A stretch of 35,408 bases of DNA from a virus. The stretch lies in the IMG/VR virus record IMGVR_UViG_3300020446_000036, positions 1 through 35,408 of that record; one strand, written 5' to 3'. Under the pieces are notes generated by a model. The model saw only the letters and a program-made list of their open reading frames with translations, had not been told where the DNA came from and did no database searches. Below, piece after piece: positions 1-26,519 of this stretch. The translations under genes were made by a program, and so were the position numbers. The stretch's first letter is position 1. Each line of letters opens with the position of its first letter.

Positions 1-224
1 TAGAAGGAAATGAGATTGACCTACCTGACTACTGGCTAGGTTTGGTGGATGAGGATACAATCACAGTCCAACTCACACCAAACAAGGGATTCCAGCAGAT
101 TTATGTCGAGAACATATCAGACAACAAGGTGTACGTCGGCACACAAAGCGACAAACCGATTGATTGCTTCTACTTCATACAGGCAGAAAGAAAGGACATT
201 GACAGGATGGAGGTCGAGTATTAA
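1..224 (+). CDS. C-terminal end of a phage tail/fibre-type protein (partial)
   Basis: The reading frame is open from the left edge, with its first complete codon at base 3, so this is the last 73 residues of a longer gene and not a gene starting at the internal TTG at 42. The visible segment contains LPDYWLGLVDEDTITVQLTP and ends IDRMEVEY. The pattern of a Pro-Asp-Tyr-Trp stretch followed by LVDEDTITVQLTP recurs near the C-terminus of structural and tail-fibre proteins of marine tailed viruses (recalled family pattern, not searched). Its TAA shares one base with the ATG of the 880-residue fibre gene, so the two are probably translationally coupled. The specific structural role is unknown. Confidence 0.65.
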   Translation, partial: EGNEIDLPDYWLGLVDEDTITVQLTPNKGFQQIYVENISDNKVYVGTQSDKPIDCFYFIQAERKDIDRMEVEY

Positions 225-2866
225 TGGCAAATAGCGATAAGGACATCAAGATTACACCAAATACAGGAGAGTCTGCTTCGCCTAAGATAGAGGTGACAGG
301 TGCGGATAACGCAACCAAGACCATAACAATAAACGATGATGGCACTATATCGTTTGATTCCACCATAGCAGCAACTTCAGGTTCAATAGCAAATGGAAAT
401 GCGAACTTAGTGACAGGAGATGCGGTGTTCGACTACATCGCAACAAGCCCACTTACAGTCGGAAACGTAATAGAAGCATCAGGCACATCTGCCCTTAAAC
501 TAAAAGCAGGTTCAAGTTTCATCGATATTCTAGACGGTGGTGTAAGCAACCACATCAATGTCACTCCTGCTAGTGGTCGTTTGAATCTATTTGGAGAGAC
601 ACTCGCAATCGGTGAGGCAGACTCAACAATAACAACCGGAGGAACATATGACTTGACTCTAGATACAAACGGAGGAACAAACTCCGGTTCGATAAAGATA
701 CTAGATGGTGCAAATGGAAACATAGAGTTGGATAACAATGGTTCAGGACAGGTGGTATTCAAGGGTAATTCAACGAAGGGTTCCGGTCAATTCGTACTTA
801 ATTGTGAACAAAACTCTCATGGTATTGTTGTCAAGGGTCCACCACACTCTGCGGGAGCATCATACACACTGACGTTGCCTGATGATGATGGTGCTGCAAA
901 TCAAGTCCTAAAGACAGATGGATCAGGTAATCTCAGTTGGGTTGACCAAAGTAGCGGGGGTATCTCCGATGTGTCTTCTGACACAACACCACAATTAGGT
1001 GGAGATTTGGATGTCAATGGAAACAAGATTACATCAGCCTCAAACGCTGATGTCACAATAGAGCCAAATGGAACAGGTGACATCAACCTCTTTACCGACA
1101 AGGTGGTTGTAGGCGATGCCTCCACTAACTTTGAGATACAACACAGGACTACGACAAACTCCCTACTGCAATTCCAAGCAGGAGGAAACACACGACTCGT
1201 ATCTGATGCTGCCATATACATAAACGCAGATGAAGCAGGAACAAGTAGTGCTACTGGTAGCCTAATTAGACTTAATGCAATAACAACAAATATTGGTAAG
1301 CACAACACCAATGCCACTCTAACGACATCAGGTACAGGTGACTTGACCCTAAACACAAACTCAGGAACGAACTCAGGAACAATAAAGATTTTCGATGGTG
1401 CTAATGGAAACATAACACTCACACCGAATGGCACAGGAGCAGTCAAATTCTATGATGCCTACACGTTTCCGACATCAGATGGTAGTAATGGACAGGTTCT
1501 AACTACCGATGGTAGTGGGACATTATCATTTACAACAGTAAGTAGCGGTAGTGGTGGTGCTGTTTCGGCAGTAGCCAACGGTGCTGACAATCGTATTGCT
1601 ACGTTTAGTAGCGCAGATGCTTTGAATGGTGAGGCTAATCTGACATTCGATGGAAGCACACTGTCAGTAAATGATGCAGGTATAGACATAAGAGAACAAT
1701 ATGGAAGATTGAATTTCAAGAAGGACGCATCTACTGGTTTTGTGAATAACTACGCTATCTTCTTCTATAACAATACGGATTCGATCAGAGGTGCGATAAA
1801 CTTCAATAATTCAGGCGAAAGGATGGGTTTCAGAACAGGTTCCGATTACCAAATCTACCTACAAGACGGTGTTTTCTATCCTGTGACTGATGATGACGTA
1901 GATTTAGGAAAATCAACTAACAAGTTCAAGGACTCATTCTTTGGCCTAGTCGATGCTGAGAACTTCAAGATAAATGGTGGACAAGGTACTGATGGTCAAG
2001 TGCTAACATCAACAGGTAGTGGTGTTGCTTGGGAAACCCCAAGCGGGGGAGGTGGTGGTAGCACATCACCTGCTGGTTCGGATGGTCAAATCCAATACAA
2101 CAACGGGGGAAGTTTCGGTGGGGATGCAGACTTCACTTGGGATGATAGCAACAACAGATTGGTCATAGGCTCAACCACATCACAACATGATAGTCTAGGG
2201 AAGTTGACCGTTAAGGGTACTGATGCGGGAATGCTCATAGAAAAGCACGACGATGGTTCAAGTGGTGGACCTACTCTCGCACTTTACAGGTATTCTGCAT
2301 CTGTCGCTGATAATGATTTAATTGGTCAGGTGAATTTCCGAGGCGAGGGTTCGACAGGAAATCCATCAACATACATGTCTATCAGAACTGAGATAGAAGA
2401 TACCACTGAGGGAACGAAGGACGGCTCATTGATTGTTAGGGGATTAATCAATAACTCACAGACGAACTTGGTCGAGATTCATGGAGCAGGTCTTACGTTG
2501 AGTCAAGGGTCATACAATGTAGGCAATGTATCTAAGGATGCTAATACTGTATCAGGTTCTAGTTTGGCTAATGGTAGTTCTGTGACATTATTTACTGTCC
2601 CTGTCACTACTAGAGGATTTAGAGCAACTATATATGTGAAAGACACAAGCAACACTGAATATCAAATCGAAGAAATAATAGGATATAACACAGGATCGGG
2701 CGTTGATTTCTCATCATTCGGTCAAGTCTACAGTGGTTCTGCTCCTATCGGTTCTCTTGATGCGACGAATAGTAGCGGCACAACATTAATACAATTTACA
2801 AACGGACAGGGTAGTGCAATTAACTACCAAGCCACTATCAGTGTGACGCATATGGATTTGAGTTGA
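224..2866 (+). CDS. Large repeat-rich tail fibre protein
   Basis: An 880-residue protein very rich in Gly, Ser, Thr, Asn and Asp, with short beta-strand-like repeats and Gly/Ser hinges, as expected of trimeric viral fibres. A segment with the pattern GT-DLTL-TN-GTNSG-IKI-DGANGNI occurs twice, around residues 140-167 and 370-397. A linker of the form QVL-T-GSG--W/F followed by a Ser/Gly run occurs three times (about residues 226, 421 and 589). The last 100 residues differ in composition and may form a separate C-terminal tip. No catalytic motif or intramolecular chaperone protease triad was recognised. The start ATG overlaps the stop of the upstream structural gene. The likely role is host-surface recognition, inferred from composition and position. 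Confidence 0.75.
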   Translation: MANSDKDIKITPNTGESASPKIEVTGADNATKTITINDDGTISFDSTIAATSGSIANGNANLVTGDAVFDYIATSPLTVGNVIEASGTSALKLKAGSSFIDILDGGVSNHINVTPASGRLNLFGETLAIGEADSTITTGGTYDLTLDTNGGTNSGSIKILDGANGNIELDNNGSGQVVFKGNSTKGSGQFVLNCEQNSHGIVVKGPPHSAGASYTLTLPDDDGAANQVLKTDGSGNLSWVDQSSGGISDVSSDTTPQLGGDLDVNGNKITSASNADVTIEPNGTGDINLFTDKVVVGDASTNFEIQHRTTTNSLLQFQAGGNTRLVSDAAIYINADEAGTSSATGSLIRLNAITTNIGKHNTNATLTTSGTGDLTLNTNSGTNSGTIKIFDGANGNITLTPNGTGAVKFYDAYTFPTSDGSNGQVLTTDGSGTLSFTTVSSGSGGAVSAVANGADNRIATFSSADALNGEANLTFDGSTLSVNDAGIDIREQYGRLNFKKDASTGFVNNYAIFFYNNTDSIRGAINFNNSGERMGFRTGSDYQIYLQDGVFYPVTDDDVDLGKSTNKFKDSFFGLVDAENFKINGGQGTDGQVLTSTGSGVAWETPSGGGGGSTSPAGSDGQIQYNNGGSFGGDADFTWDDSNNRLVIGSTTSQHDSLGKLTVKGTDAGMLIEKHDDGSSGGPTLALYRYSASVADNDLIGQVNFRGEGSTGNPSTYMSIRTEIEDTTEGTKDGSLIVRGLINNSQTNLVEIHGAGLTLSQGSYNVGNVSKDANTVSGSSLANGSSVTLFTVPVTTRGFRATIYVKDTSNTEYQIEEIIGYNTGSGVDFSSFGQVYSGSAPIGSLDATNSSGTTLIQFTNGQGSAINYQATISVTHMDLS
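640..1412 (+). repeat. Duplicated fibre motif, copies at about 640-724 and 1333-1412
   Basis: Two diverged copies encode nearly the same 28-residue unit (GT-DLTL-TN-GTNSG-IKI-DGANGNI). The DNA copies differ mainly at third positions and a few codons. This suggests an old internal duplication that built the fibre by adding modules. Confidence 0.6.
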
Positions 2867-9172: not shown

Positions 9173-9434
9173 TTTTATTACCTCCAAATCTCACTGTAGC
9201 AGATGATAACTCGATTTTTATCGTCTCCGCTATCTCCGCTTTTATTTTCATTAGAACCTTCTTCTGAAATTCTTCGCCTATCTCATTCCAAACTATGTCC
9301 AACTTATCCTTTGGAGTCATGTAGTCATACGCCTTGTGCGCCATTATGTTTATCGTGGTCTGAACATTCGATATCTCTTCAAAGGTCCATTCTTTCTTCT
9401 TCAGTTCATTCATTATGTATTGGTTCAAATTCAT
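9093..9434 (-). CDS. Hypothetical helical protein with an acidic tail
   Basis: A 113-residue protein beginning MNLNQYIMNELKKKEWTF at the ATG that overlaps the nuclease stop (TAATG). It is predicted to be mostly alpha-helical, and its last 25 residues are Gly/Pro rich then strongly acidic (SETDEEKNSEE). An acidic tail of this kind is seen in single-strand-binding and DNA-mimic proteins, but no other feature supports either idea. Its 3' end overlaps the primase gene by about 80 bases. Confidence 0.55.
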   Translation of the reverse strand: MNLNQYIMNELKKKEWTFEEISNVQTTINIMAHKAYDYMTPKDKLDIVWNEIGEEFQKKVLMKIKAEIAETIKIELSSATVRFGGNKNDVSEGSLGGEPPAPSETDEEKNSEE

Positions 9435-10300
9435 TACATCCAACTCTCTTCTTGTGCTTTCTCACATATTCCATAGAAACTACAGTTCTGACATGTCTTG
9501 AAGAAATACTTCGCATAGAAGTCATCCTTCTCATAGGATGCCAATAACTCAACTAGTCCCTTCAATACTGCTGTATGACTAGATGGTTTACATTCCTCGA
9601 CATATGTATAATTTGATGCGGGGTAGTACCAACCCCAATACTTCATCTCATACTCAGGGTTCAATCCATTCTGCTCAAGGACTTCGGGACTTGCACTATC
9701 AAAGAGTAGTTTGTAGAACGCCATCTCCTTCCTCATCATGGTTCTCTTGTAGTCCTTCCAAGGCCCGGTCTTCAACTCCATAGGGATGTAGAAACCATCT
9801 TCCTCAAAGATTCGATCAATGATACCCTGTATGTGGACCTTGTATGGTCTTGACAATTCGACCTTGGGATTCCAATCGGGTTGTATGACAATCTGTGCAT
9901 CGAGTATTACCTCATTACCCGGTGGTAGGAACTCATGTGTCTTACCCTCATTCCTAGCCTCGATGAATCTTTGTGTCGCATTCGTTGCCATAGTGTCATA
10001 CATATCAGAATAGTCGTCTATTGGAAACAGGCTCATGCAGTAGTTCTTCACCTCAGAGGGAGTCATCGTCTCCGCCTTCTTGACATCGAATGTATTGAAG
10101 AAGTCCTCTTGCGAGTTGTGTATTATACTACCCTTAGCCATAGCGGGACTTTGATCGATGGGCAATCTCATCGGATATTGAAAGAAATACCTAGCAGGAC
10201 ACCATTGAAAGGAACCGAATGAAGACTTCGTTATCTTCAGTATAGGTTGCGTCTCATCATCATAACTTGCAGGATTCCACTCATACGTATATTCTCTCAT
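9434..10300 (-). CDS. Cas4/RecB-like PD-(D/E)XK nuclease with Fe-S cluster cysteines
   Basis: A 288-residue protein with the Cas4-type layout. One cysteine (C34) lies near the N-terminus in FQWCPARYFF, H61 in KGSIIHNSQED, D162 in GIIDRIF and E175-x-K177 in MELKTG. Three clustered cysteines (C270, C273, C279) lie near the C-terminus in TCQNCSFYGIC. In Cas4 and AddB-type enzymes the four cysteines hold a 4Fe-4S cluster. No CRISPR array is visible, so this is probably a replication or recombination exonuclease. I used the ATG that overlaps the polymerase stop (TGATG); another ATG lies nine bases upstream. Confidence 0.8.
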   Translation of the reverse strand: MREYTYEWNPASYDDETQPILKITKSSFGSFQWCPARYFFQYPMRLPIDQSPAMAKGSIIHNSQEDFFNTFDVKKAETMTPSEVKNYCMSLFPIDDYSDMYDTMATNATQRFIEARNEGKTHEFLPPGNEVILDAQIVIQPDWNPKVELSRPYKVHIQGIIDRIFEEDGFYIPMELKTGPWKDYKRTMMRKEMAFYKLLFDSASPEVLEQNGLNPEYEMKYWGWYYPASNYTYVEECKPSSHTAVLKGLVELLASYEKDDFYAKYFFKTCQNCSFYGICEKAQEESWM

Positions 10301-11199
10301 CAAAACCACTCATCCAATGTCTTTTGTTTTCTGTCTTTTCTTATTCTTTGCTCATCCCAACCCATTGCTCTAAACACAGGGCTGGCCTTCTTCACTATAG
10401 ATTCTGCATAGTGACTCCAATCAGGAGTGAAGTTTGCGAAGTCTTCTATCCTAGGTGCTGAATAATACTCAGGCTTCACCACCACTTGTTTCGTAGGATG
10501 CACTAGGGAGTGTGGGTTGTTCCTTATCTTCAGATATAGATAGGAGTCATCGATGTGATCCTTGTTCAACTTGTTATGTAGAAGCACACCTATCACTCCC
10601 GAACCCACTGTTGGTTTCTTACCTGCTCCTTTCCATCCCTTTCCCGATTTCTTCACAGTCTGAAATGATGGTGACTCACAGCACAATGCCTTGGTGAGAA
10701 ACATGAGGCTAGATGTAGTATCGCAGTTATTGCATAGAACATGGAATCTTTCAGGTCTATACCTACTTCTCTTCAGCACCCTCTCAGTCTTTATCTTACC
10801 GAGTTTGGTCTTCTCGTATATCTCATTGAGATATTGAACTACCTCGTCCTCGGTCTTCTCATTCACCCACATGTTGAGTACGGTGATCTGAACCTCCTTG
10901 TCCAGTTGCGTTTCTGATACTCTCTTTGCAGTGAATCCAGTCATGACGAATTCCTCTTCATCGAGGAACTCCCCATCCTTCCAAGTGATCAAACCAGCAT
11001 TCCTGTTCTTGGTAGCACCCACACCTAGGGTTCTGAAATACTTCTCAAACTCCAAGGTGACGGGATGCTCATCAAGGCCCAACACATTAGGAAACTTGGA
11101 TCGAACATGATCGTTCAATGTGGATAGTACAGACTGTGCTTCCTCAACACTGTCCACTTGACAGTATATCGAATCTGTGTGTCCATATACCACTTCCAT
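10300..11199 (-). CDS. DNA polymerase B, C-terminal fragment (motif C, thumb, PIP box)
   Basis: A 299-residue protein that begins right at polymerase motif C (MEVVYGHTDSIY) and continues through the palm end and thumb region. The usual YGDTDS reads YGHTDS here: the first Asp is His, while the second, metal-binding Asp is kept. The protein ends QKTLDEWF, a good PCNA-interacting (PIP) box, which links it to the clamp encoded nearby. A cluster of cysteines around residues 155-174 (CNNCDTTSS, then CC) may be a zinc site. It has its own ribosome site, GGGAGGAAG, and its ATG overlaps the zinc-finger gene stop (TAATG). It presumably assembles with the 562-residue fragment encoded upstream. Confidence 0.85.
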   Translation of the reverse strand: MEVVYGHTDSIYCQVDSVEEAQSVLSTLNDHVRSKFPNVLGLDEHPVTLEFEKYFRTLGVGATKNRNAGLITWKDGEFLDEEEFVMTGFTAKRVSETQLDKEVQITVLNMWVNEKTEDEVVQYLNEIYEKTKLGKIKTERVLKRSRYRPERFHVLCNNCDTTSSLMFLTKALCCESPSFQTVKKSGKGWKGAGKKPTVGSGVIGVLLHNKLNKDHIDDSYLYLKIRNNPHSLVHPTKQVVVKPEYYSAPRIEDFANFTPDWSHYAESIVKKASPVFRAMGWDEQRIRKDRKQKTLDEWF

Positions 11200-11375
11200 T
11201 ATTCTTCCTCCCTGAATTGTCTAGCCCATTTCAACGGACTCATCATGAAGATGTAGTTGTTGAGCCAGTTCTGCACACAGAAGTTGCAGACGAAACCGCT
11301 CTTTGTGTCACAACCAGCAGCATAGTTGCTGCTCACATTACAGACATAGCATTCCTTGAATATTACTCCACTCAT
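11199..11375 (-). CDS. Small zinc-finger protein inserted between the two polymerase genes
   Basis: A 58-residue protein starting MSGVIFKECYVCN, with C9, C12, C22, C30 and C33 (CxxC ... CNFC), so a probable zinc ribbon or treble clef. Its ATG overlaps the stop of the N-terminal polymerase fragment (ATGA), and its stop overlaps the ATG of the C-terminal fragment (TAATG). The three genes are therefore translated as a chain. There is no HNH, GIY-YIG or LAGLIDADG motif and no intein splice residue, so it does not look like a homing element. It could be a polymerase accessory factor; its function is unknown. Confidence 0.6.
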   Translation of the reverse strand: MSGVIFKECYVCNVSSNYAAGCDTKSGFVCNFCVQNWLNNYIFMMSPLKWARQFREEE

Positions 11376-13060
11376 GATAACTGCCTCACTTTGAATGCTG
11401 CTTCACGAATGGCCTCCCTAGCACTAGCAGTAATACTTGCTGCCAAGTCAACATCAGCCCAACCGAACCCTTGGTATGCAATGATACCGTAGAAGGATGC
11501 CATCAATCTCTTGACTGCTAGTTGGTTGTTGTTCCACTTGGCATACTCCGACTTGTTTTCTGCCTTCTTCATGTTTCTCTTGTATTCATTACGTAGTTCC
11601 TTCAACTCCAATACTGCCCTAGGTAATAGTCCTAGTTCATCAGTCTTGTAGTATAGCATCTTGGTGTTCTCTACATCCGAGAAGTCCTTTGGTGTGAATA
11701 TGTTCACTGCAAACTCAGTCGGGTTATCGGATTTAGTCTCCCAAGATATGTTCCTCGCTATCATCATAGATGGGTATAGTCCAGCGAAGTCAAACGCTGC
11801 CACTCCTAGATGAAGACCGTTGGTTCCTGCTTCTAGCGGATCGTATACCATTGCCCCATCGTAGTCAACCCTTTCTCCCTTGGAGCCTGTGGGTGCTTTC
11901 CATGATGCGTTGCGCATGAAGTAGATACCACCCATGTGACTAGCATAGAAACACGCATCGAATGGTGCTTTCAGTAGTCTTTGTAGTGATATGATAGCCT
12001 CACTTGTGTAGTTTTCCTCATCTATTCTCCTAATTAGGTCAACGTCAATCAATGCATATCGCATGTAGGTGTGAGTATCCTCCAACCATGCTCTTGCGAA
12101 GAACTCGTTCTTGTCTGGAAACTTCTTACTGACTAGTTTCTTCTCGCCAAGCACTTCTGTTGAGATGTAGTCCAAGGAAAGCGATGGTAAACTGCCTCTT
12201 TGAGCATCGTTCCACTGTCTTTCAAACGCTAAATCTAAATTTAGGGTAATTCTTCCCTTGATTGGTTGTTCAATCGGAGAAAAAGTCTCTTTTCTAAAGG
12301 TAAATCCTTCTTTTGTTGGATAAAACCCTGTTATTTCTCCAACAGGAGACATAACTCTTGCATCTATCTTGTTTTTTATGCATCTTTCTAATAGTTTTGG
12401 TAAATCGAACTGATTTCCGAACCATGATATAAGCATATCGGGGTCATCATTGATGATATCTGACAAAAACGCACTAATCATGGTGCTTTCACTATCAAAT
12501 CTCCTTGTGATGACCCTCTTATCGTCAATGTTGTTTACAGAAACCATGTATTGTAGTTTCATCTCAGGAAACCACACATACTGATAGAAGCACTGCCTAT
12601 AATTGTCATAGACGACAATACAGGTGATGGAACCATTGTGTTCTCCACCTTGCTGCCACTCCATGTCCCAATACCACTTTCTGAATCGGTATTCAGGTAT
12701 CTCATCCATTTCATCGACTGCATATCTGTGGTGATGTGACACATCAGCCTCAAATGTAAGATGAAAAGCCTCCCTAGCATCACGCATGTGCTTTGGGTGC
12801 TTTGGCTCAAAGAATACCTTGGACAATGATGATCCTTGTAGGTCAACTGCTACATCATGCTCGTATGTGAAATCAAACTCAGTCTTCTTACCCCACTTGT
12901 TCGTAGTGGAGGATCTATCCTTCACAGCATCGTCCCTCCTGACATAGAAGTATGGTCTGAAATCATTGAATGATACAAACTTCTCATTTCTAATTGGTTC
13001 GTCTCCTTCTCCTTCTCGCCATCTTAAACAAACACCTTCATCTGTTGGTGCTATTATCAT
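11372..13060 (-). CDS. DNA polymerase B, N-terminal fragment (exonuclease, motifs A and B)
   Basis: A 562-residue protein with proofreading motifs ExoI (YWDMEW, D132/E134), ExoII (SWFGNQFDLP, N216/D219) and ExoIII (YALID, Y335/D339), then polymerase motif A DFAGLYPS at 424-431 and motif B KRLMASFYG at 517-525. It stops at ...FKVRQLS, just before the strand that would carry motif C. Motif C begins the gene 172 bases downstream, so the two products together equal one normal family B enzyme of about 860 residues. A GAGGTGAT ribosome site precedes the ATG, right after the PCNA gene. A split polymerase is also known from Methanothermobacter. Confidence 0.9.
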   Translation of the reverse strand: MIIAPTDEGVCLRWREGEGDEPIRNEKFVSFNDFRPYFYVRRDDAVKDRSSTTNKWGKKTEFDFTYEHDVAVDLQGSSLSKVFFEPKHPKHMRDAREAFHLTFEADVSHHHRYAVDEMDEIPEYRFRKWYWDMEWQQGGEHNGSITCIVVYDNYRQCFYQYVWFPEMKLQYMVSVNNIDDKRVITRRFDSESTMISAFLSDIINDDPDMLISWFGNQFDLPKLLERCIKNKIDARVMSPVGEITGFYPTKEGFTFRKETFSPIEQPIKGRITLNLDLAFERQWNDAQRGSLPSLSLDYISTEVLGEKKLVSKKFPDKNEFFARAWLEDTHTYMRYALIDVDLIRRIDEENYTSEAIISLQRLLKAPFDACFYASHMGGIYFMRNASWKAPTGSKGERVDYDGAMVYDPLEAGTNGLHLGVAAFDFAGLYPSMMIARNISWETKSDNPTEFAVNIFTPKDFSDVENTKMLYYKTDELGLLPRAVLELKELRNEYKRNMKKAENKSEYAKWNNNQLAVKRLMASFYGIIAYQGFGWADVDLAASITASAREAIREAAFKVRQLS

Positions 13061-13064
13061 TCTA

Positions 13065-13817
13065 TCACCTCGCTAAATATGGGGCCTTCAACAACACACG
13101 GTTGTTTGAAACTATCAATATGGGAAAGTCATCCCTCAGATACACAGTGGTATCATCGTTTAGTATGGATGCGAAAACACCCGTCACTTCAACAGTCGAT
13201 TGTTCTCCCTCTACAGATTGTGTGTCAATAGTGGTGAGATAGGACTGTATGGTTCCATCCTTGTTTGAGGAAAGTTGGAACTCATTACCGTCATAGTTGA
13301 ACTTGTATCTACCAGTCTTCAGGACATCACATCCCTTCGCAGCATCAATCAAGTCCGTTGCACTGACCACTACCTTCGTCTCAAACGGTGTGTTGTTCTT
13401 ACCGAATACAGGCATACCCTCAGTGGGTATCGATAGTGTTCGTAGTCTCTCGATCATCGCATAGTTAGGATGGTTGACCGCTATGCCAAAGGATGCGGTC
13501 TTGTTTGATGTCCTCAATCTGACATAATCACCAACCTCAACGGTGACATCACCCTTGAATGTCTTCAAGTAGTTGAGAAACGTATCAACTACTATCGCAC
13601 ATTCACCGATGTCATCAACCGTATCCAGTGGTATAGTAGCAGAACAGACGGTACTCATGTCTGCATTGAACAGTTGCACACCGTCTGTCCTTGCTACCAT
13701 ATACGCTGAAGGTGATAGGTTTCTCCTAGATACTGAAGCACCACTTGGATAGTCGCCACGCATTAGTATATCATTGAGATTCTTGATTAGTATCTTGCTA
13801 TCCACAGTGAACTTCAT
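13065..13817 (-). CDS. PCNA-like sliding clamp
   Basis: A 250-residue protein of normal PCNA length. The N-terminus MKFTVDSKILIKNLNDIL and the C-terminal strands VYLRDDFPILIVSNNRVLLK ending KAPYLAR match the archaeal/eukaryal clamp pattern (D-x-P-L/I near the end, then ...LAPR). Two similar halves are expected, joined by the loop around residues 120-130. The clamp tethers the polymerase (which has a PIP box), and probably other PIP-bearing partners, to DNA. It lies directly before the polymerase gene and overlaps the RecA-like gene by four bases. Confidence 0.85.
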   Translation of the reverse strand: MKFTVDSKILIKNLNDILMRGDYPSGASVSRRNLSPSAYMVARTDGVQLFNADMSTVCSATIPLDTVDDIGECAIVVDTFLNYLKTFKGDVTVEVGDYVRLRTSNKTASFGIAVNHPNYAMIERLRTLSIPTEGMPVFGKNNTPFETKVVVSATDLIDAAKGCDVLKTGRYKFNYDGNEFQLSSNKDGTIQSYLTTIDTQSVEGEQSTVEVTGVFASILNDDTTVYLRDDFPILIVSNNRVLLKAPYLAR

Positions 13818-22127: not shown

Positions 22128-22559
22128 TTAGCAACTTCCGTCCCATAGCCTGTATCTAACAACGTAGTCGTATGTCATGTTCATGCTGAAGTCAGGGAAG
22201 TGCAGTATCGCACTACCAGTCGTTCCATATCCATCTGATATGTATAGACCGTTCTGATTCACATGTCCTGTCTTAGACTCGAATGTGGTATTGTCGAATA
22301 CCACTGTGTTGTTCTCAAACACGAAGGATGTGTGTGATGCTGTGTATGTGAAGTAGTCCAACTGGAACAACATCGTATCATTGCCTAAATCAACTATGGG
22401 CATGGTGCTGTTATTGTCCTGCATCCACGTCACTTCCTCATCCACCCTAACCCAATCAGGAGTAGGGCATTCGGAGAATACATCCTCCGGGTCGGGTATG
22501 GCCTCAGTGCATCCAGCCAACATCGTGCTTATCATCAATAGTGCGATTACCTTCTTCAT
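22128..22559 (-). CDS. Secreted lipoprotein with many N-glycosylation sequons
   Basis: A 143-residue protein with a classic lipoprotein signal: Lys-Lys start, hydrophobic core and lipobox LAGC (Cys17), MKKVIALLMISTMLAGC. The mature part has six N-x-S/T sequons (N49, N50, N60, N83, N90, N127), unusually many for its length, which fits surface glycosylation in archaea. Three cysteines including the lipid-bearing one, no enzyme motif. It would sit on the outer face of the host membrane. In known viruses such proteins may block superinfection or change the host surface, but this is inference. It overlaps the JAMM gene by ATGA. Confidence 0.75.
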   Translation of the reverse strand: MKKVIALLMISTMLAGCTEAIPDPEDVFSECPTPDWVRVDEEVTWMQDNNSTMPIVDLGNDTMLFQLDYFTYTASHTSFVFENNTVVFDNTTFESKTGHVNQNGLYISDGYGTTGSAILHFPDFSMNMTYDYVVRYRLWDGSC

Positions 22560-23071
22560 TCCTCTTCGCCTCCAAAGTCGAATAGAGTCGGAGAGACTCT
22601 CTGTGGGCTAACGTGACCAAACTGGTATTTAACGAATTTAGATGTGTTCGACTTCAAGTTGTATGAGAAATACTCATTGTCACCAACAACGATGGCATGT
22701 TCCATCATGGGCCTCCATGTGTTGATCGTCCTCCAATCAGTCCCACTGAAGAAAGCCTGACCGAATGGATGTGTGTGTATCCATACCTTGATCGGCAGTT
22801 TCATCCCGAATATCGACTTGTCATCTTGATTGAACCATACAAGTCCGGGGTTTCCCTCACTACAGTACATATTGTCGTTGGAGTCAATCACAACTTGAAT
22901 CTCATTACCATTACATACGTCATGAGTCACTGCCCATATCAAATCCAAGAAACGCTCACATTCCTCATTTACAGGCCAAAACGATATGTCCTCTACATTG
23001 TCGGCATAGTGAGACTTTATCTCATCAAACTTCGCATTGTCATACACTGCCACTGCTTCATCCGATAACAT
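22556..23071 (-). CDS. JAMM/MPN metalloprotease (deubiquitinase-like)
   Basis: A 171-residue protein with the JAMM zinc motif complete in spacing: H99-T-H101-P, seven residues, S109-x-x-D112 (in WIHTHPFGQAFFSGTD). The expected upstream catalytic Glu is probably in the NEIQVVID strand or just before it. Family members cleave isopeptide bonds of ubiquitin-like proteins or trim their C-termini; phage tail and sulfur-carrier systems also use them. The virus encodes a Gly-Gly-ending ubiquitin-like protein and an E1-like enzyme, so these are likely partners. Start ATG 23071 follows a perfect GGAGGTG; an ATG further upstream overlaps the neighbouring gene. Confidence 0.8.
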   Translation of the reverse strand: MLSDEAVAVYDNAKFDEIKSHYADNVEDISFWPVNEECERFLDLIWAVTHDVCNGNEIQVVIDSNDNMYCSEGNPGLVWFNQDDKSIFGMKLPIKVWIHTHPFGQAFFSGTDWRTINTWRPMMEHAIVVGDNEYFSYNLKSNTSKFVKYQFGHVSPQRVSPTLFDFGGEEE

Positions 23072-23441
23072 ACAACACACCTCCAACAAGTATGACACCA
23101 ACAACGAGCATCAGCAGCATCCTGCTTCTGTTCCTGTACACTGTCACTCTTCTGTTTACCATGCCGACGTTCTTGGTTAGTTTGTCCACTGTCTTTCGTA
23201 TCTCTTCGTCAACCTTGGTCAAATCACCAATCATCTCGTCCTGCACTGTGTCAGTGACGCTTTGGTATGTTTCGTTCTCTATCAATTCCAATCCTAGTGC
23301 GTTGACCTTGTACTTCAAGGAACCAACGGTTCTCTTGTATCCATTTTGGAAGAATTGCTCTTGTATTCTAACAAGGCTATACCCATCCTCAATGCAGTTC
23401 TTCAACAACACTACTTCTGTTTCTGTCCATTTCTTACTCAT
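23058..23441 (-). CDS. Myb/SANT-like protein with a C-terminal membrane anchor
   Basis: A 127-residue protein. Residues 3-50 (KKWTETEVVLLKNCIEDGYS, on to TVGSLKYKVNALGL) have a Myb/SANT-like or GcrA-like helix-turn-helix pattern starting with the typical W-T-E-x-E. The middle is a heptad-like helix. The last 20 residues (MLLMLVVGVILVGGVLYVIG) form a clear membrane helix. A DNA-binding head on a membrane anchor could hold the viral genome or a promoter at the membrane. The ribosome site AGGAGGTT is very good. It overlaps the JAMM gene by 14 bases. Confidence 0.6.
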   Translation of the reverse strand: MSKKWTETEVVLLKNCIEDGYSLVRIQEQFFQNGYKRTVGSLKYKVNALGLELIENETYQSVTDTVQDEMIGDLTKVDEEIRKTVDKLTKNVGMVNRRVTVYRNRSRMLLMLVVGVILVGGVLYVIG

Positions 23442-23596
23442 CTTTTCAACCTCCTATAGTTATAGGTGAATTCTTTTGCTAGAGCCATTGCTCTTTGTTC
23501 ATCAATTATACTGTTATTTCTTGTGATATATTCGGCTATCACATGTATGGGTTCTCCACCCTCTATCATCATCATAATATCGCTCATCCTACTCAT
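23438..23596 (-). CDS. Small protein (52 residues) between the E1-like and Myb-like genes
   Basis: The frame starts MSRMSDIMMMIEGGEPIHVI and ends TYNYRRLKR. Its ATG overlaps the E1-like stop (ATGA), and its stop overlaps the next ATG (ATGA), so it is locked into the operon. The composition is helical. A short GEPIHVIAEYI stretch recalls a helix-turn-helix, but too little sequence exists to assign it. Confidence 0.6.
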   Translation of the reverse strand: MSRMSDIMMMIEGGEPIHVIAEYITRNNSIIDEQRAMALAKEFTYNYRRLKR

Positions 23597-24156
23597 ATGC
23601 TCACCGTCACGAAATCCGATACTTCCTCATCATTGAATCTCTTCTGAATCCATTGTGAGCCCATTGCTGCGATTACTATATTCATCTGATTCACCTGTTC
23701 TGCGGAACCATCCCACTCCTGTGCTTGGCATGAGTAGGAACCATCATCACCAACTAATAGCATATCAAGTTTGTTTTTGTCGATGTCTGATGAGATCAAT
23801 ACGGCATTTCTTCCCTGCGCTCTCAAGTCCAGCCACTGCTTAGGTTTCTTTGAATTGTATAGCATTCTTCTCGTACTCATGTTATCAACGCAACAAACAA
23901 CAAGATCATACTTGTCAAGATCCCTATCCATAACAACATCAAATGGTTGTGCCTTGATGTTGAACTGTGTCTGCATGGACCTCGCCTTTGTATCTCCAAT
24001 GTGAGATACGTTGTAGTTCTGATACAGAATGTTCTTTCTTTCTACCTTATCTGAGTCAAAAACCGTTAGGTCGTATATCTTCAGTTTATTCAGGAATTGC
24101 ACAAGGAAACTCCCTATGCCACCTGCTCCTATTATCAATATCTTTCTTTTACTCAT
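23593..24156 (-). CDS. E1/ThiF/MoeB-like adenylating enzyme
   Basis: A 187-residue protein with the nucleotide loop GAGGIGS at 10-16, then FDSDKVERKNILYQ at 33-46 (matching D.D.VE.SNL.RQ) with HIGDTKA at 52-58, and CCVDNMSTRR at 88-97 (the C.DN...R motif). This is the adenylation domain of enzymes that activate the C-terminal Gly-Gly of ubiquitin-like proteins. It is shorter than MoeB (about 250 residues) and lacks the usual paired CxxC zinc ligands; only C88, C89 and C143 exist as possible catalytic cysteines. The partner is inferred to be the Gly-Gly protein encoded at 28731-28928. Start ATG 24156 follows GAGTGAT. Confidence 0.8.
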   Translation of the reverse strand: MSKRKILIIGAGGIGSFLVQFLNKLKIYDLTVFDSDKVERKNILYQNYNVSHIGDTKARSMQTQFNIKAQPFDVVMDRDLDKYDLVVCCVDNMSTRRMLYNSKKPKQWLDLRAQGRNAVLISSDIDKNKLDMLLVGDDGSYSCQAQEWDGSAEQVNQMNIVIAAMGSQWIQKRFNDEEVSDFVTVSI

Positions 24157-24161
24157 TTTAA

Positions 24162-24374
24162 TCACTCATCCTCTTCTCTCTTTAGTTCATCCAAGAGATG
24201 CTGTGGCGCACCTGCTTCAATCAATCTTACTTTTAGTACCTCATAGAGCCAACAGTCGTCACAACAAACTCCCTCTTTGACAGGTTCCGCATCATGACCC
24301 CACCAATGGGGATTATCATCGTCTATTCGCATTGTTTTTTCACATATTACACATATTTCCAATCTTACCATCAT
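24162..24374 (-). CDS. Small zinc-ribbon protein (70 residues)
   Basis: The 70-residue product has CVIC at 8-11 and CCDDC at 37-41 around a His/Trp-rich stretch (NPHWWGHDAEP), a likely zinc ribbon. The C-terminal third is a charged helix. Its ATG overlaps the TFB stop (ATGATGG, two possible starts). Co-transcribed with TFB and the E1-like gene. No named family. Confidence 0.55.
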   Translation of the reverse strand: MMVRLEICVICEKTMRIDDDNPHWWGHDAEPVKEGVCCDDCWLYEVLKVRLIEAGAPQHLLDELKREEDE

Positions 24375-25264
24375 ATTATCAACTTCCTCTTAAATTGTAA
24401 GTAGTATTCAGGAACTACTTGTTTCCTCTTCATTCCTAGGCATCTCAGTATCCTAGCAGCAGCAGTTCTGATCGTCACTTCTGAGACACCTTGGGTTCGC
24501 TGCAACTGCCTTTGTGTCACACTTCTCTCATTGAATCTCGCAGTTAACCAAATACCTGCGAGAACCTGTGTCGTGGTAAATGCCTCATCTGAGAACATTT
24601 CCTTGATACCGTAGAGTATCTCAATGCACTCACTCATCAAGTAAGTGTCATCGTCGTAGGAGCCGAGTGTGTCAGTAAGTATCCTTTGTACCTCGCTCTC
24701 TATGTTTATCTGCCTAGGTCTTATGTTGTCTCCCAATGCCCTCATCGTCTTCTTCAGTAGTTTGAAGAAGGGCTTGAACTCCTGTCCATTCGTCTTGCAG
24801 AATTGCCTGACTGTCACACTGACATTGTGTTTCCTGAGTGTGGCATATGCAACAGCAGCACCAAACATTTCTGCATTTGACGCATGATACTGAAACCGTC
24901 TCTCCCTCAAGAAGTTGGAGATGTATGCTGCATCCTCCTTCATCGTCTGTGATGGGTTGTAGTAGGATAATGCCATGTGGATGATCGATCTATACTTGTC
25001 ACTTTTCTTATTGTATCTCTCGACTCTCTTCAATGCCCTTATTCTCTTGTCACCATACTGACCTGCTCCTATGACTGAGCCTAAGTCCTTGGTTCTACTG
25101 ACTGACTCCCTACCTATCATGCCCATGTCTCTTCCGGGCATCATCATACTACTGGTTTCCTCTAAGGGAGTCAGCATGATGACAAGACCACAATTGTCAC
25201 AGGTGTGTTCACCTAACCTCTCATCATAGGTAGACTCACTATTACCACATTCAATGCATTTCAT
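24371..25264 (-). CDS. tfb: Transcription factor B (TFIIB-like)
   Basis: A 297-residue protein with an N-terminal zinc ribbon (C3, C6, C22, C25 in CIEC and CDNC) and a linker containing LGSVIG, as in archaeal TFB B-reader/linker regions. Two cyclin-like repeats follow, the first around 85-185 and the second around 205-290, ending with a helix-turn-helix (VTQRQLQRTQGVSEVTIRTA) that would read the BRE. It would direct host RNA polymerase to viral promoters. It overlaps the upstream gene by 14 bases. Start ATG 25264 is preferred; GTG 25273 is possible. Confidence 0.9.
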   Translation of the reverse strand: MKCIECGNSESTYDERLGEHTCDNCGLVIMLTPLEETSSMMMPGRDMGMIGRESVSRTKDLGSVIGAGQYGDKRIRALKRVERYNKKSDKYRSIIHMALSYYNPSQTMKEDAAYISNFLRERRFQYHASNAEMFGAAVAYATLRKHNVSVTVRQFCKTNGQEFKPFFKLLKKTMRALGDNIRPRQINIESEVQRILTDTLGSYDDDTYLMSECIEILYGIKEMFSDEAFTTTQVLAGIWLTARFNERSVTQRQLQRTQGVSEVTIRTAAARILRCLGMKRKQVVPEYYLQFKRKLII

Positions 25265-26519
25265 TTTCTTCACTTATCTCATTATTACATCTATCTATCC
25301 ATTCTTTGTCTACTCTTATCACCTTTGGTGGAAGATTGCTTCTTAGAGTATGGATCGCATTCACTGCTGCTTGGTCATTCAACAGGGCCAACGCCCTAGA
25401 TACTATCTGATCACCTATGCTAGAGTTCCCATGTATGTTGTCTATGCATATGGGTCCATTCAACTTGTATTGACCCATCGCAACTTTGTGGGTTCTGTGT
25501 GGTGAAACACCGCTTATGGAATATACCTCTACGCTTTGATGCTTGTTGGAAGTGCGTCGTTGTGGTATGATCACCCAATCAGCGAGTTGACCATTCACCA
25601 ACATACTCTTCCTAGGGAGATGATCATTCTCATCCTCCTTGTGCATGAACACCTTCAACCTAGTGGGGAACTTGGCCTCCATCTCAGTAAGGAGTTTCTG
25701 CGCCCTTTCCTCTACGATCTTCTGTGTTCTATTCTGATCTAGGAAATGATGCATTACTCGCTCAGTCGATGCTGACATGTTCTTGTAGGTATCCATGTCT
25801 AGAGTTCTGATTAGATTCATAGGAGAAAGATTCCACTTCTTCGATCTGTTGTTCATGTCCTTGTGATATTTTAGGAAGGAGTCTAGATCCTTGTTCTTTA
25901 TTGGAATCCATAGAGAGTCTGATATCTCCAATGCACATTCCTTATCACTGATTCTCTTTGTGTTGAGTCTGACCTTCACTCTCTCACCATCCCTGAAATA
26001 TCGATATGGTGTCCTGTTCTCCAAGGCATGAATAACCCTAGGTGGAACAGTGAGAAGCATGTTGACATACTCCTTCATGGTCACGCTACTCTTCTCAAAG
26101 CATAGTCTATTGATGATCTTGGACATTATGTGTTCTGCGTTTTCCTTGGAAACTGCCACTCCATTCAGTCTGACACTTGATTTATTGTAGAGAAGATGTA
26201 CGGTAAACATACCATCCTCCATCTTCCTAGATATGATGACATTCTGATTGTCGTCATTGTATATTACCGAGAACTTGTTCAACCTAGACCTTGGAAAGAA
26301 CCAAACTCTCATCGCTTGTCTGATATTCTCAAGTACAGGGTCATCTGAACTGGACATATTCGTATGTCCCACTTTCATCATGTGTTCGCCTAGATGGTTG
26401 ACAGTATTCCTTCTCCTTCTATGAGAAGAGAGTGGAGGAACATACCTGACGAGCATCGATGTCTTGTAGTATTCATCCCTATTGTCATTCGGCGTTGGTA
26501 TTAGCACTTTGATTTTCAT
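25251..26519 (-). CDS. Unknown 422-residue basic protein
   Basis: I do not recognise this protein. It starts MKIKVLIPTPNDNRDEYYKT and has an unusually basic composition with several Arg/Lys patches (SSHRRRRN near residue 32). The middle is mixed strands and helices (LLYNKSSVRLNGVAVSKENA), and the C-terminal part has IIPQRRTSNKHQSVEVYSI and a helix-rich end. Position before TFB and after the reductase suggests an information-processing role, but no motif confirms it. The ribosome site AGGTGAT before the ATG at 26519 is excellent. Confidence 0.6.
   Translation of the reverse strand: MKIKVLIPTPNDNRDEYYKTSMLVRYVPPLSSHRRRRNTVNHLGEHMMKVGHTNMSSSDDPVLENIRQAMRVWFFPRSRLNKFSVIYNDDNQNVIISRKMEDGMFTVHLLYNKSSVRLNGVAVSKENAEHIMSKIINRLCFEKSSVTMKEYVNMLLTVPPRVIHALENRTPYRYFRDGERVKVRLNTKRISDKECALEISDSLWIPIKNKDLDSFLKYHKDMNNRSKKWNLSPMNLIRTLDMDTYKNMSASTERVMHHFLDQNRTQKIVEERAQKLLTEMEAKFPTRLKVFMHKEDENDHLPRKSMLVNGQLADWVIIPQRRTSNKHQSVEVYSISGVSPHRTHKVAMGQYKLNGPICIDNIHGNSSIGDQIVSRALALLNDQAAVNAIHTLRSNLPPKVIRVDKEWIDRCNNEISEENEMH

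What the first reader, a model, noticed from the sequence alone, without database searches (positions are those of the whole stretch)
10300..13060. Family B polymerase split exactly before motif C with a zinc-finger gene in between
The 562-residue fragment ends after the helix that precedes motif C, and the 299-residue fragment begins at MEVVYGHTDS, so no part of the enzyme is lost. The 172 bases between hold a complete 58-residue CxxC protein whose ends overlap both fragments (ATGA and TAATG). The two fragments and the insert lie in three different frames, so a single sequencing error cannot explain the split. The position coincides with a well-known intein site in archaeal polymerases. The split gene may be the outcome of a lost intein or mobile insertion that became a new subunit.
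Basis: partly seen in the sequence, partly recalled or inferred. Interest (0 to 1): 0.7.

Follow-up and report, generated by a model that had tools for sequence, protein, structure and literature searches.

The report
Ancient two-gene polymerase with cargo slot
This virus of marine archaea makes its DNA-copying enzyme as two separate proteins cut just before the active-site motif C; every close relative found is cut at the same residue, but the small zinc-finger gene between the halves is only one of many interchangeable genes found there, and some relatives have none.

Summary
A family B DNA polymerase is encoded as 562 + 299 residues, with a 58-residue CxxC ORF between them (ATGA and TAATG overlaps). 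It is no artefact: 150 distinct IMG/VR relatives are all split at the same residue (start codon + 3 residues + YGHTDS). They form one clade (SH-aLRT 100) that excludes 47 marine relatives with one continuous gene. The halves map to KOD polymerase residues 2-532 and 534-759, so nothing is lost. No intein piece remains; the known pol-c intein site (YGD|TDS) lies 7 residues inside the C-half. Start codons, Shine-Dalgarno sites and varying frames show separate initiation of the C-half. The zinc-finger gene is not a general third subunit: the gap is -4 to 2554 nt, holds about 87 gene families, and two nested lineages have no insert. In this form it is confined to the window's nearest clade, under purifying selection. 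HNH and GIY-YIG endonuclease genes sit in the slot of scattered relatives, mostly right after the N-half, so a mobile-endonuclease origin is plausible but unproven. The magrovirus split is already annotated (ICTV: PolB-NTD/CTD); I found no description of its fixed position, single origin or cargo slot.

The parts
11372..13060 (-). PolB N-half, 562 aa: N-terminal domain, 3'-5' exonuclease, palm motif A, fingers, motif B; ends in the helix before motif C
   Evidence: aligns to KOD Pol 2..532; homologues in all split relatives, 51-78% identical
11199..11375 (-). 58-aa CxxC zinc-ribbon-like ORF in the gap; cargo family F6
   Evidence: dN/dS about 0.05-0.10; no Pfam hit, no convincing PHROG hit
10300..11199 (-). 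PolB C-half, 299 aa: motif C strand, rest of palm, thumb with an extra CxxC element, C-terminal PIP-like box
   Evidence: (aligns to KOD Pol 534..759)
11768..11791 (-). motif A DFAGLYPS (N-half residues 424-431)
11486..11512 (-). motif B KRLMASFYG (N-half residues 517-525)
11170..11187 (-). motif C YGHTDS (C-half residues 5-10); the first Asp is His, as in all split and all continuous marine relatives
   Evidence: HF1 has YGDTDS
11207..11212 (-). GGGAGG Shine-Dalgarno-like site for the C-half, inside the 3' end of the insert ORF
   Evidence: 88% of 150 relatives have an SD match of 4 or more there
10678..10734 (-). CxxC...CC metal-binding-like element in the thumb of the C-half (residues 156-174); at least one Cys pair in 138/138 split relatives, no CxxC in 47 continuous ones
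10303..10326 (-). PIP-like box QKTLDEWF at the C-terminus of the C-half
   Evidence: 133/138 split relatives; function inferred
13065..13817 (-). probable sliding clamp, immediately upstream of the N-half
   Evidence: weak profile matches to beta clamp and PCNA, E 0.001-0.02; conserved next to PolB
9434..10309 (-). PD-(D/E)XK nuclease, overlaps the 3' end of the C-half gene
   Evidence: PF12705

Best explanation
The viral replicative PolB became two genes once, in the ancestor of this magrovirus clade, by a break in the loop between the helix that ends the fingers/palm segment and the beta strand that carries motif C. N-half and C-half are translated separately from one operon (termination-reinitiation at ATGA/TAATG overlaps plus own Shine-Dalgarno sites) and are inferred to assemble non-covalently into one exonuclease-proficient polymerase whose palm is built from both chains and whose C-half binds the clamp through a PIP-like tail. 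The junction is now a slot where small genes, including the window's 58-aa zinc-ribbon gene and, in relatives, HNH and GIY-YIG endonucleases, come and go. The zinc-ribbon gene is such a cargo gene, conserved in this form only in the window's nearest clade. Shown: exact shared split, single clade, complete fold across two chains, separate initiation signals, variable cargo, cargo-free relatives. Inferred: operon transcription, heterodimer assembly and activity, clamp binding. Whether a mobile endonuclease made the original break is left open (about even odds).
For: 150/150 distinct split relatives have exactly 4 residues before YGHTDS; 147/150 N-halves end 19-22 residues after the ITASAR motif, against 24 residues from ITxxSR to YGHTDS in all 47 continuous marine relatives. 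One origin: split = one change, SH-aLRT 100 (FastTree keeps 140/140 together). Separate initiation: first C-half codon ATG 144, TTG 5, GTG 1, against only 13/47 ATG at the same codon in continuous genes; SD match 88% against 19% there and 21% random; gap length mod 3 is 57/51/42, so no fixed frame link. Structures: N-half pLDDT 91.7, C-half 90.7; VIA Z 27.4 and 15.5 to KOD Pol (7om3_A), complementary ranges 2..532 and 534..759. Both halves under purifying selection, dN/dS about 0.10. Slot: N->C median 682 nt against 4 nt (clamp->N) and 27 nt (C->nuclease); cargo families rarely found outside the gap in 872 kb of flanks. Endonuclease-like genes in 9 gaps, 8 of them first after the N-half. Insert-free: L055/L057/L150 (-4 nt) and L086 (-1 nt), nested among cargo-bearing tips.
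Against: No biochemistry: assembly and activity are inferred. The complex of the two halves could not be predicted here. The endonucleases may have invaded an existing split rather than caused it. No major cargo family spans the basal fork of the split clade, so the ancestral insert, if any, is unknown.
Confidence: 0.85

Rival explanations
1. The 58-aa zinc-ribbon protein is a third polymerase subunit that bridges the two halves.
For: It lies exactly between the halves, is translationally linked to both, and is under strong purifying selection (dN/dS about 0.05-0.10); distant F6 relatives occur in about ten other gaps.
Against: Most split relatives have unrelated genes in the gap and two lineages have none. 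One F6-like gene lies downstream of the polymerase instead (L074).
Confidence: 0.1
2. The split is the trace of a lost intein at pol-c, as proposed for Methanobacteriales and as in Nanoarchaeum equitans.
For: Same neighbourhood of the enzyme; known inteins sit at YGD|TDS (PMC549080); split PolB3 of Methanobacteriales was proposed to come from erratic intein excision (PMC4104785).
Against: The break is 7 residues upstream of the intein site; no intein residues on either side in 150 relatives; cargo genes are ordinary ORFs and the endonucleases are free-standing HNH/GIY-YIG.
Confidence: 0.08
3. The two halves are joined after all, by programmed frameshifting, bypassing, an intron or trans-splicing.
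For: In insert-free relatives the two frames overlap by 1-4 nt.
Against: Gap lengths -4 to 2554 nt with all three frame relations; start codon and SD conserved at the C-half start; no Rfam match in 12 loci tested; no intein pieces.
Confidence: 0.03
4. A variant of the best explanation about origin only: simple fission by frameshift or internal re-initiation with no mobile element; the junction was colonised later.
For: Insert-free forms exist and look like a frameshifted gene with an ATGA overlap; 13/47 continuous genes already have ATG at the codon that became the start.
Against: Insert-free lineages are nested inside cargo-bearing clades, so they look derived.
Confidence: 0.4

Closest known systems
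Aoguangviridae / magrovirus PolB-NTD and PolB-CTD (ICTV profile PMC10768690)
   Same: Same virus order; PolB annotated as two genes in YSH_150918
   Different: That source only labels the genes in a figure legend; it does not describe the residue-exact split, single origin, cargo slot or insert-free forms
Aeromonas phage 25 / 44RR gp43A-gp43B (PMC2988022; L348)
   Same: Viral PolB in two genes, in phage 25 with a homing endonuclease between; the phage 25 halves co-purify and are active
   Different: Break lies between motif A and motif B (43A ends near residue 498; motif B is in 43B), not before motif C
Methanobacteriales split PolB3 (PMC4104785)
   Same: Archaeal PolB made of two polypeptides
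   Different: Cellular enzyme; proposed to come from intein excision; break position not checked here
Nanoarchaeum equitans PolB with split pol-c intein (PMC549080)
   Same: Break near motif C
   Different: Break at YGD|TDS with intein halves that can trans-splice; none here
Phage Aeh1 nrdA split by mobE (PMC2988022)
   Same: Essential phage enzyme split by a free-standing endonuclease, functional as two chains
   Different: Different enzyme; single known case

Membership tests
Family B DNA polymerase | Exo I-III, motifs A, B, C and right-hand fold | tested here: met
   D132/E134, D219, D339, DFAGLYPS, KRLMASFYG, YGHTDS; fold Z 27.4 / 15.5 to KOD Pol. First Asp of motif C is His; [quoted passage not shown]
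Magrovirus (order Magrovirales) replication module | PolB with clamp, RFC-S, ERCC4 nuclease and ATP-dependent ligase in one contig | tested here: met
   ERCC4, RFC-S/AAA, DNA ligase, TFB-like ribbon; clamp weak. Family-level placement not tested, as the named reference genomes were not held
Split PolB made by a homing endonuclease (phage 25 type) | Free-standing homing endonuclease gene at the junction | tested here: inconclusive
   Absent in the window; endonuclease-like genes present in 9 relatives' gaps; activity and causal role not shown
Split-intein PolB (N. equitans type) | Intein N and C fragments fused to the halves | tested here: not met
   Window and relatives have no room for intein pieces: 4 residues before YGHTDS in 150/150; N-ends 19-22 residues past ITASAR in 147/150
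Intein-containing PolB, pol-c allele | Break at YGD|TDS | tested here: not met
   Break 7 residues upstream
Two-subunit functional polymerase | Halves associate and polymerise | not testable with these tools
   Needs expression and assay

The most novel reading that the evidence does not exclude
A whole clade of marine archaeal viruses has fixed a replicase whose catalytic palm is built from two chains, and uses the break as a standing slot for mobile endonucleases and small, clade-specific genes that are expressed with the replisome and are rarely found elsewhere in the surrounding region.
Probability: 0.6. Interest if true: 0.65.

Novelty: new variant of a known kind. Interest (0 to 1): 0.5.

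Why it matters
Splits of replicative polymerases are known from scattered cases. Here one break is kept, to the residue, across a diverse viral clade and can be compared with insert-free, cargo-bearing and endonuclease-bearing sisters and with a continuous sister group. That makes two questions testable: whether a mobile endonuclease can fix a permanent gene fission in a core enzyme, and why the genes are not re-fused. It also offers a natural split site for engineering two-part polymerases.

Tried and rejected
Sequencing or assembly error: rejected by 150 distinct relatives. RNA intron: no Rfam match at gathering threshold in 12 loci, which tests only the curated families. Intein: no residues left. 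Zinc residues once inside the polymerase: continuous relatives lack them. General direct-repeat signature of cargo insertion: only 2 of 147 gaps held a second copy of the N-gene end clearly above shuffles, although cargo ORFs in first place end in EMx(0-3) more often than others (13/105 against 5/360, Fisher p 6.5e-6); part of this may be the shared Shine-Dalgarno AAGGAGATG, so it is not used as proof. Phage collection: no C-half match; only about 24% identical matches for the N-half among the best hits, mostly haloviruses, and the two I opened are continuous. One GTDB contig (L349, in a MAG named Maricaulis) is also split. Philosof 2017, Zhou 2023 and Prabhu 2025 were not held, so prior description of the split there could not be checked.

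Full report
Observation. On the minus strand the window encodes a 562-residue PolB N-half (13060-11372), a 58-residue CxxC protein (11375-11199) and a 299-residue PolB C-half (11199-10300) that starts MEVVYGHTDS. The overlaps ATGA and TAATG are as reported. Pfam DNA_pol_B covers the N-half at profile positions 37-196 and the C-half at 222-348. The insert has no Pfam match and no convincing PHROG match.

The split is real and general. A search of IMG/VR with the C-half gave 43 relatives; 41 are split and two, L042 and L043, are continuous. Further scans brought the set to 199 distinct loci with both parts: 150 split and 49 continuous (47 marine viruses of the L042 kind plus haloviruses HGTV-1 and HF1). 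In all 150 the C-half has exactly four residues before YGHTDS; 147 of 150 N-halves end 19-22 residues after the ITASAR motif; in the 47 continuous marine enzymes the distance from ITxxSR to YGHTDS is 24. So no more than a residue or two is gained or lost, and no intein piece is left.

One origin. On an IQ-TREE tree of 69 rows the split state needs one change, with SH-aLRT 100; FastTree on all rows also keeps 140 of 140 split tips together, with weaker support of 0.65 for that fork. The His in place of the first motif C Asp is shared with the continuous marine group, while HF1 has YGDTDS, so it probably predates the split.

Nothing of the enzyme is lost. AlphaFold2 models of the halves (mean pLDDT 91.7 and 90.7) align to KOD polymerase (7om3_A) residues 2..532 (Z 27.4, 488 residues, 3.4 A) and 534..759 (Z 15.5, 217 residues, 2.7 A). 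Motifs A and B are on the N-half, motif C on the C-half, so the active site must be assembled from two chains. That they do assemble is inference. The C-half carries an extra Cys-pair element in the thumb (138/138) and a PIP-like tail (133/138); the continuous group has no CxxC there. The upstream gene is probably the sliding clamp (weak profile matches).

Separate translation. The first codon of the C-half is ATG, TTG or GTG in 150/150, while the matching codon is ATG in only 13 of 47 continuous genes. A Shine-Dalgarno match of four or more is present at 88% of C-half starts, 86% of N-half starts, 19% of the matching places in continuous genes and 21% of random 15-mers. The frame relation between halves is spread over all three values (57/51/42). 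This argues against frameshifting or bypassing as a shared mechanism.

The insert is cargo. The N-to-C gap ranges from -4 to 2554 nt, median 682, against medians of 4 and 27 nt for the clamp-to-N and C-to-nuclease junctions. It holds 465 ORFs in 87 families; of the families examined, most have no match elsewhere in 872 kb of flanking DNA. The window's insert is 83-90% identical in its nearest clade only, with dN/dS about 0.05-0.10; distant zinc-ribbon relatives (family F6) occur in about ten other gaps. Two lineages have no insert at all: L055/L057/L150 (ATGA overlap) and L086 (TAATG); both are nested among cargo-bearing tips, so loss of cargo is the simpler reading.

Mobile endonucleases. HNH-type genes (family F16 in five gaps, F26 in three) and one GIY-YIG-type gene (F66, MUG113/T5orf172) occur in scattered tips, eight of nine directly after the N-half. 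Sister loci show the occupied and the empty site: L105 and L113 lack what L107 (HNH), L112 (HNH) and L115 (GIY-YIG) carry, with 95-100% identical N-gene ends. This resembles how free-standing homing endonucleases are distributed in T4-like phages, where Aeromonas phage 25 has a split gene 43 with a seg-type endonuclease between, and the two products co-purify and are active (PMC2988022). In phage 25 the break lies between motifs A and B, so the two cases are independent. Whether an endonuclease caused the magrovirus break, or invaded later, is open.

Compared with what is known. Split PolBs are known from Methanobacteriales and N. equitans (PMC4104785) and T4-like phages; the pol-c intein site is YGD|TDS (PMC549080), 7 residues inside the C-half. 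The ICTV profile of Aoguangviridae labels PolB-NTD and PolB-CTD genes in a magrovirus (PMC10768690), so the split itself has been noticed. I found no description of its fixed position, single origin, cargo slot or insert-free forms, but key papers were not held. Hence 'new variant of a known kind', interest about 0.5.

Noticed in passing
L189:3794-4135: A gap ORF of 114 aa matches Viral_Rep (PF02407, E 4e-17), the replication-initiator domain known from circular ssDNA viruses, inside an archaeal tailed-virus contig.
   Followed up: no
L110 and L325 (contig IMGVR_UViG_3300021958_000021, 184,733 bases): One contig about twice the usual magrovirus genome length carries two different split PolB loci; either two genomes joined or a duplication.
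   Followed up: no
window 22556-24165: A ThiF/E1-like gene (23593-24165, PF00899 E 1e-15) near a weak JAB-like gene (22556-23104), a ubiquitin-pathway-like pair.
   Followed up: no
window 24371-25273: Protein with a TFIIB-type zinc ribbon, a viral TFB-like factor.
   Followed up: no
N-halves of 17 loci, e.g. L023, L025, L034, L036: A CxxC...CxxC insertion just before motif A, absent in the window.
   Followed up: partly
L035:3671-4444: An N6/N4 DNA methyltransferase (PF01555, E 7e-54) sits in the polymerase gap of one relative.
   Followed up: no
L346:1099-1890: In halovirus HGTV-1 a LAGLIDADG endonuclease gene lies directly upstream of the continuous PolB gene.
   Followed up: no
L349: A contig binned into a Maricaulis MAG carries a split magrovirus-type PolB; probably a misbinned virus contig.
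   Followed up: partly
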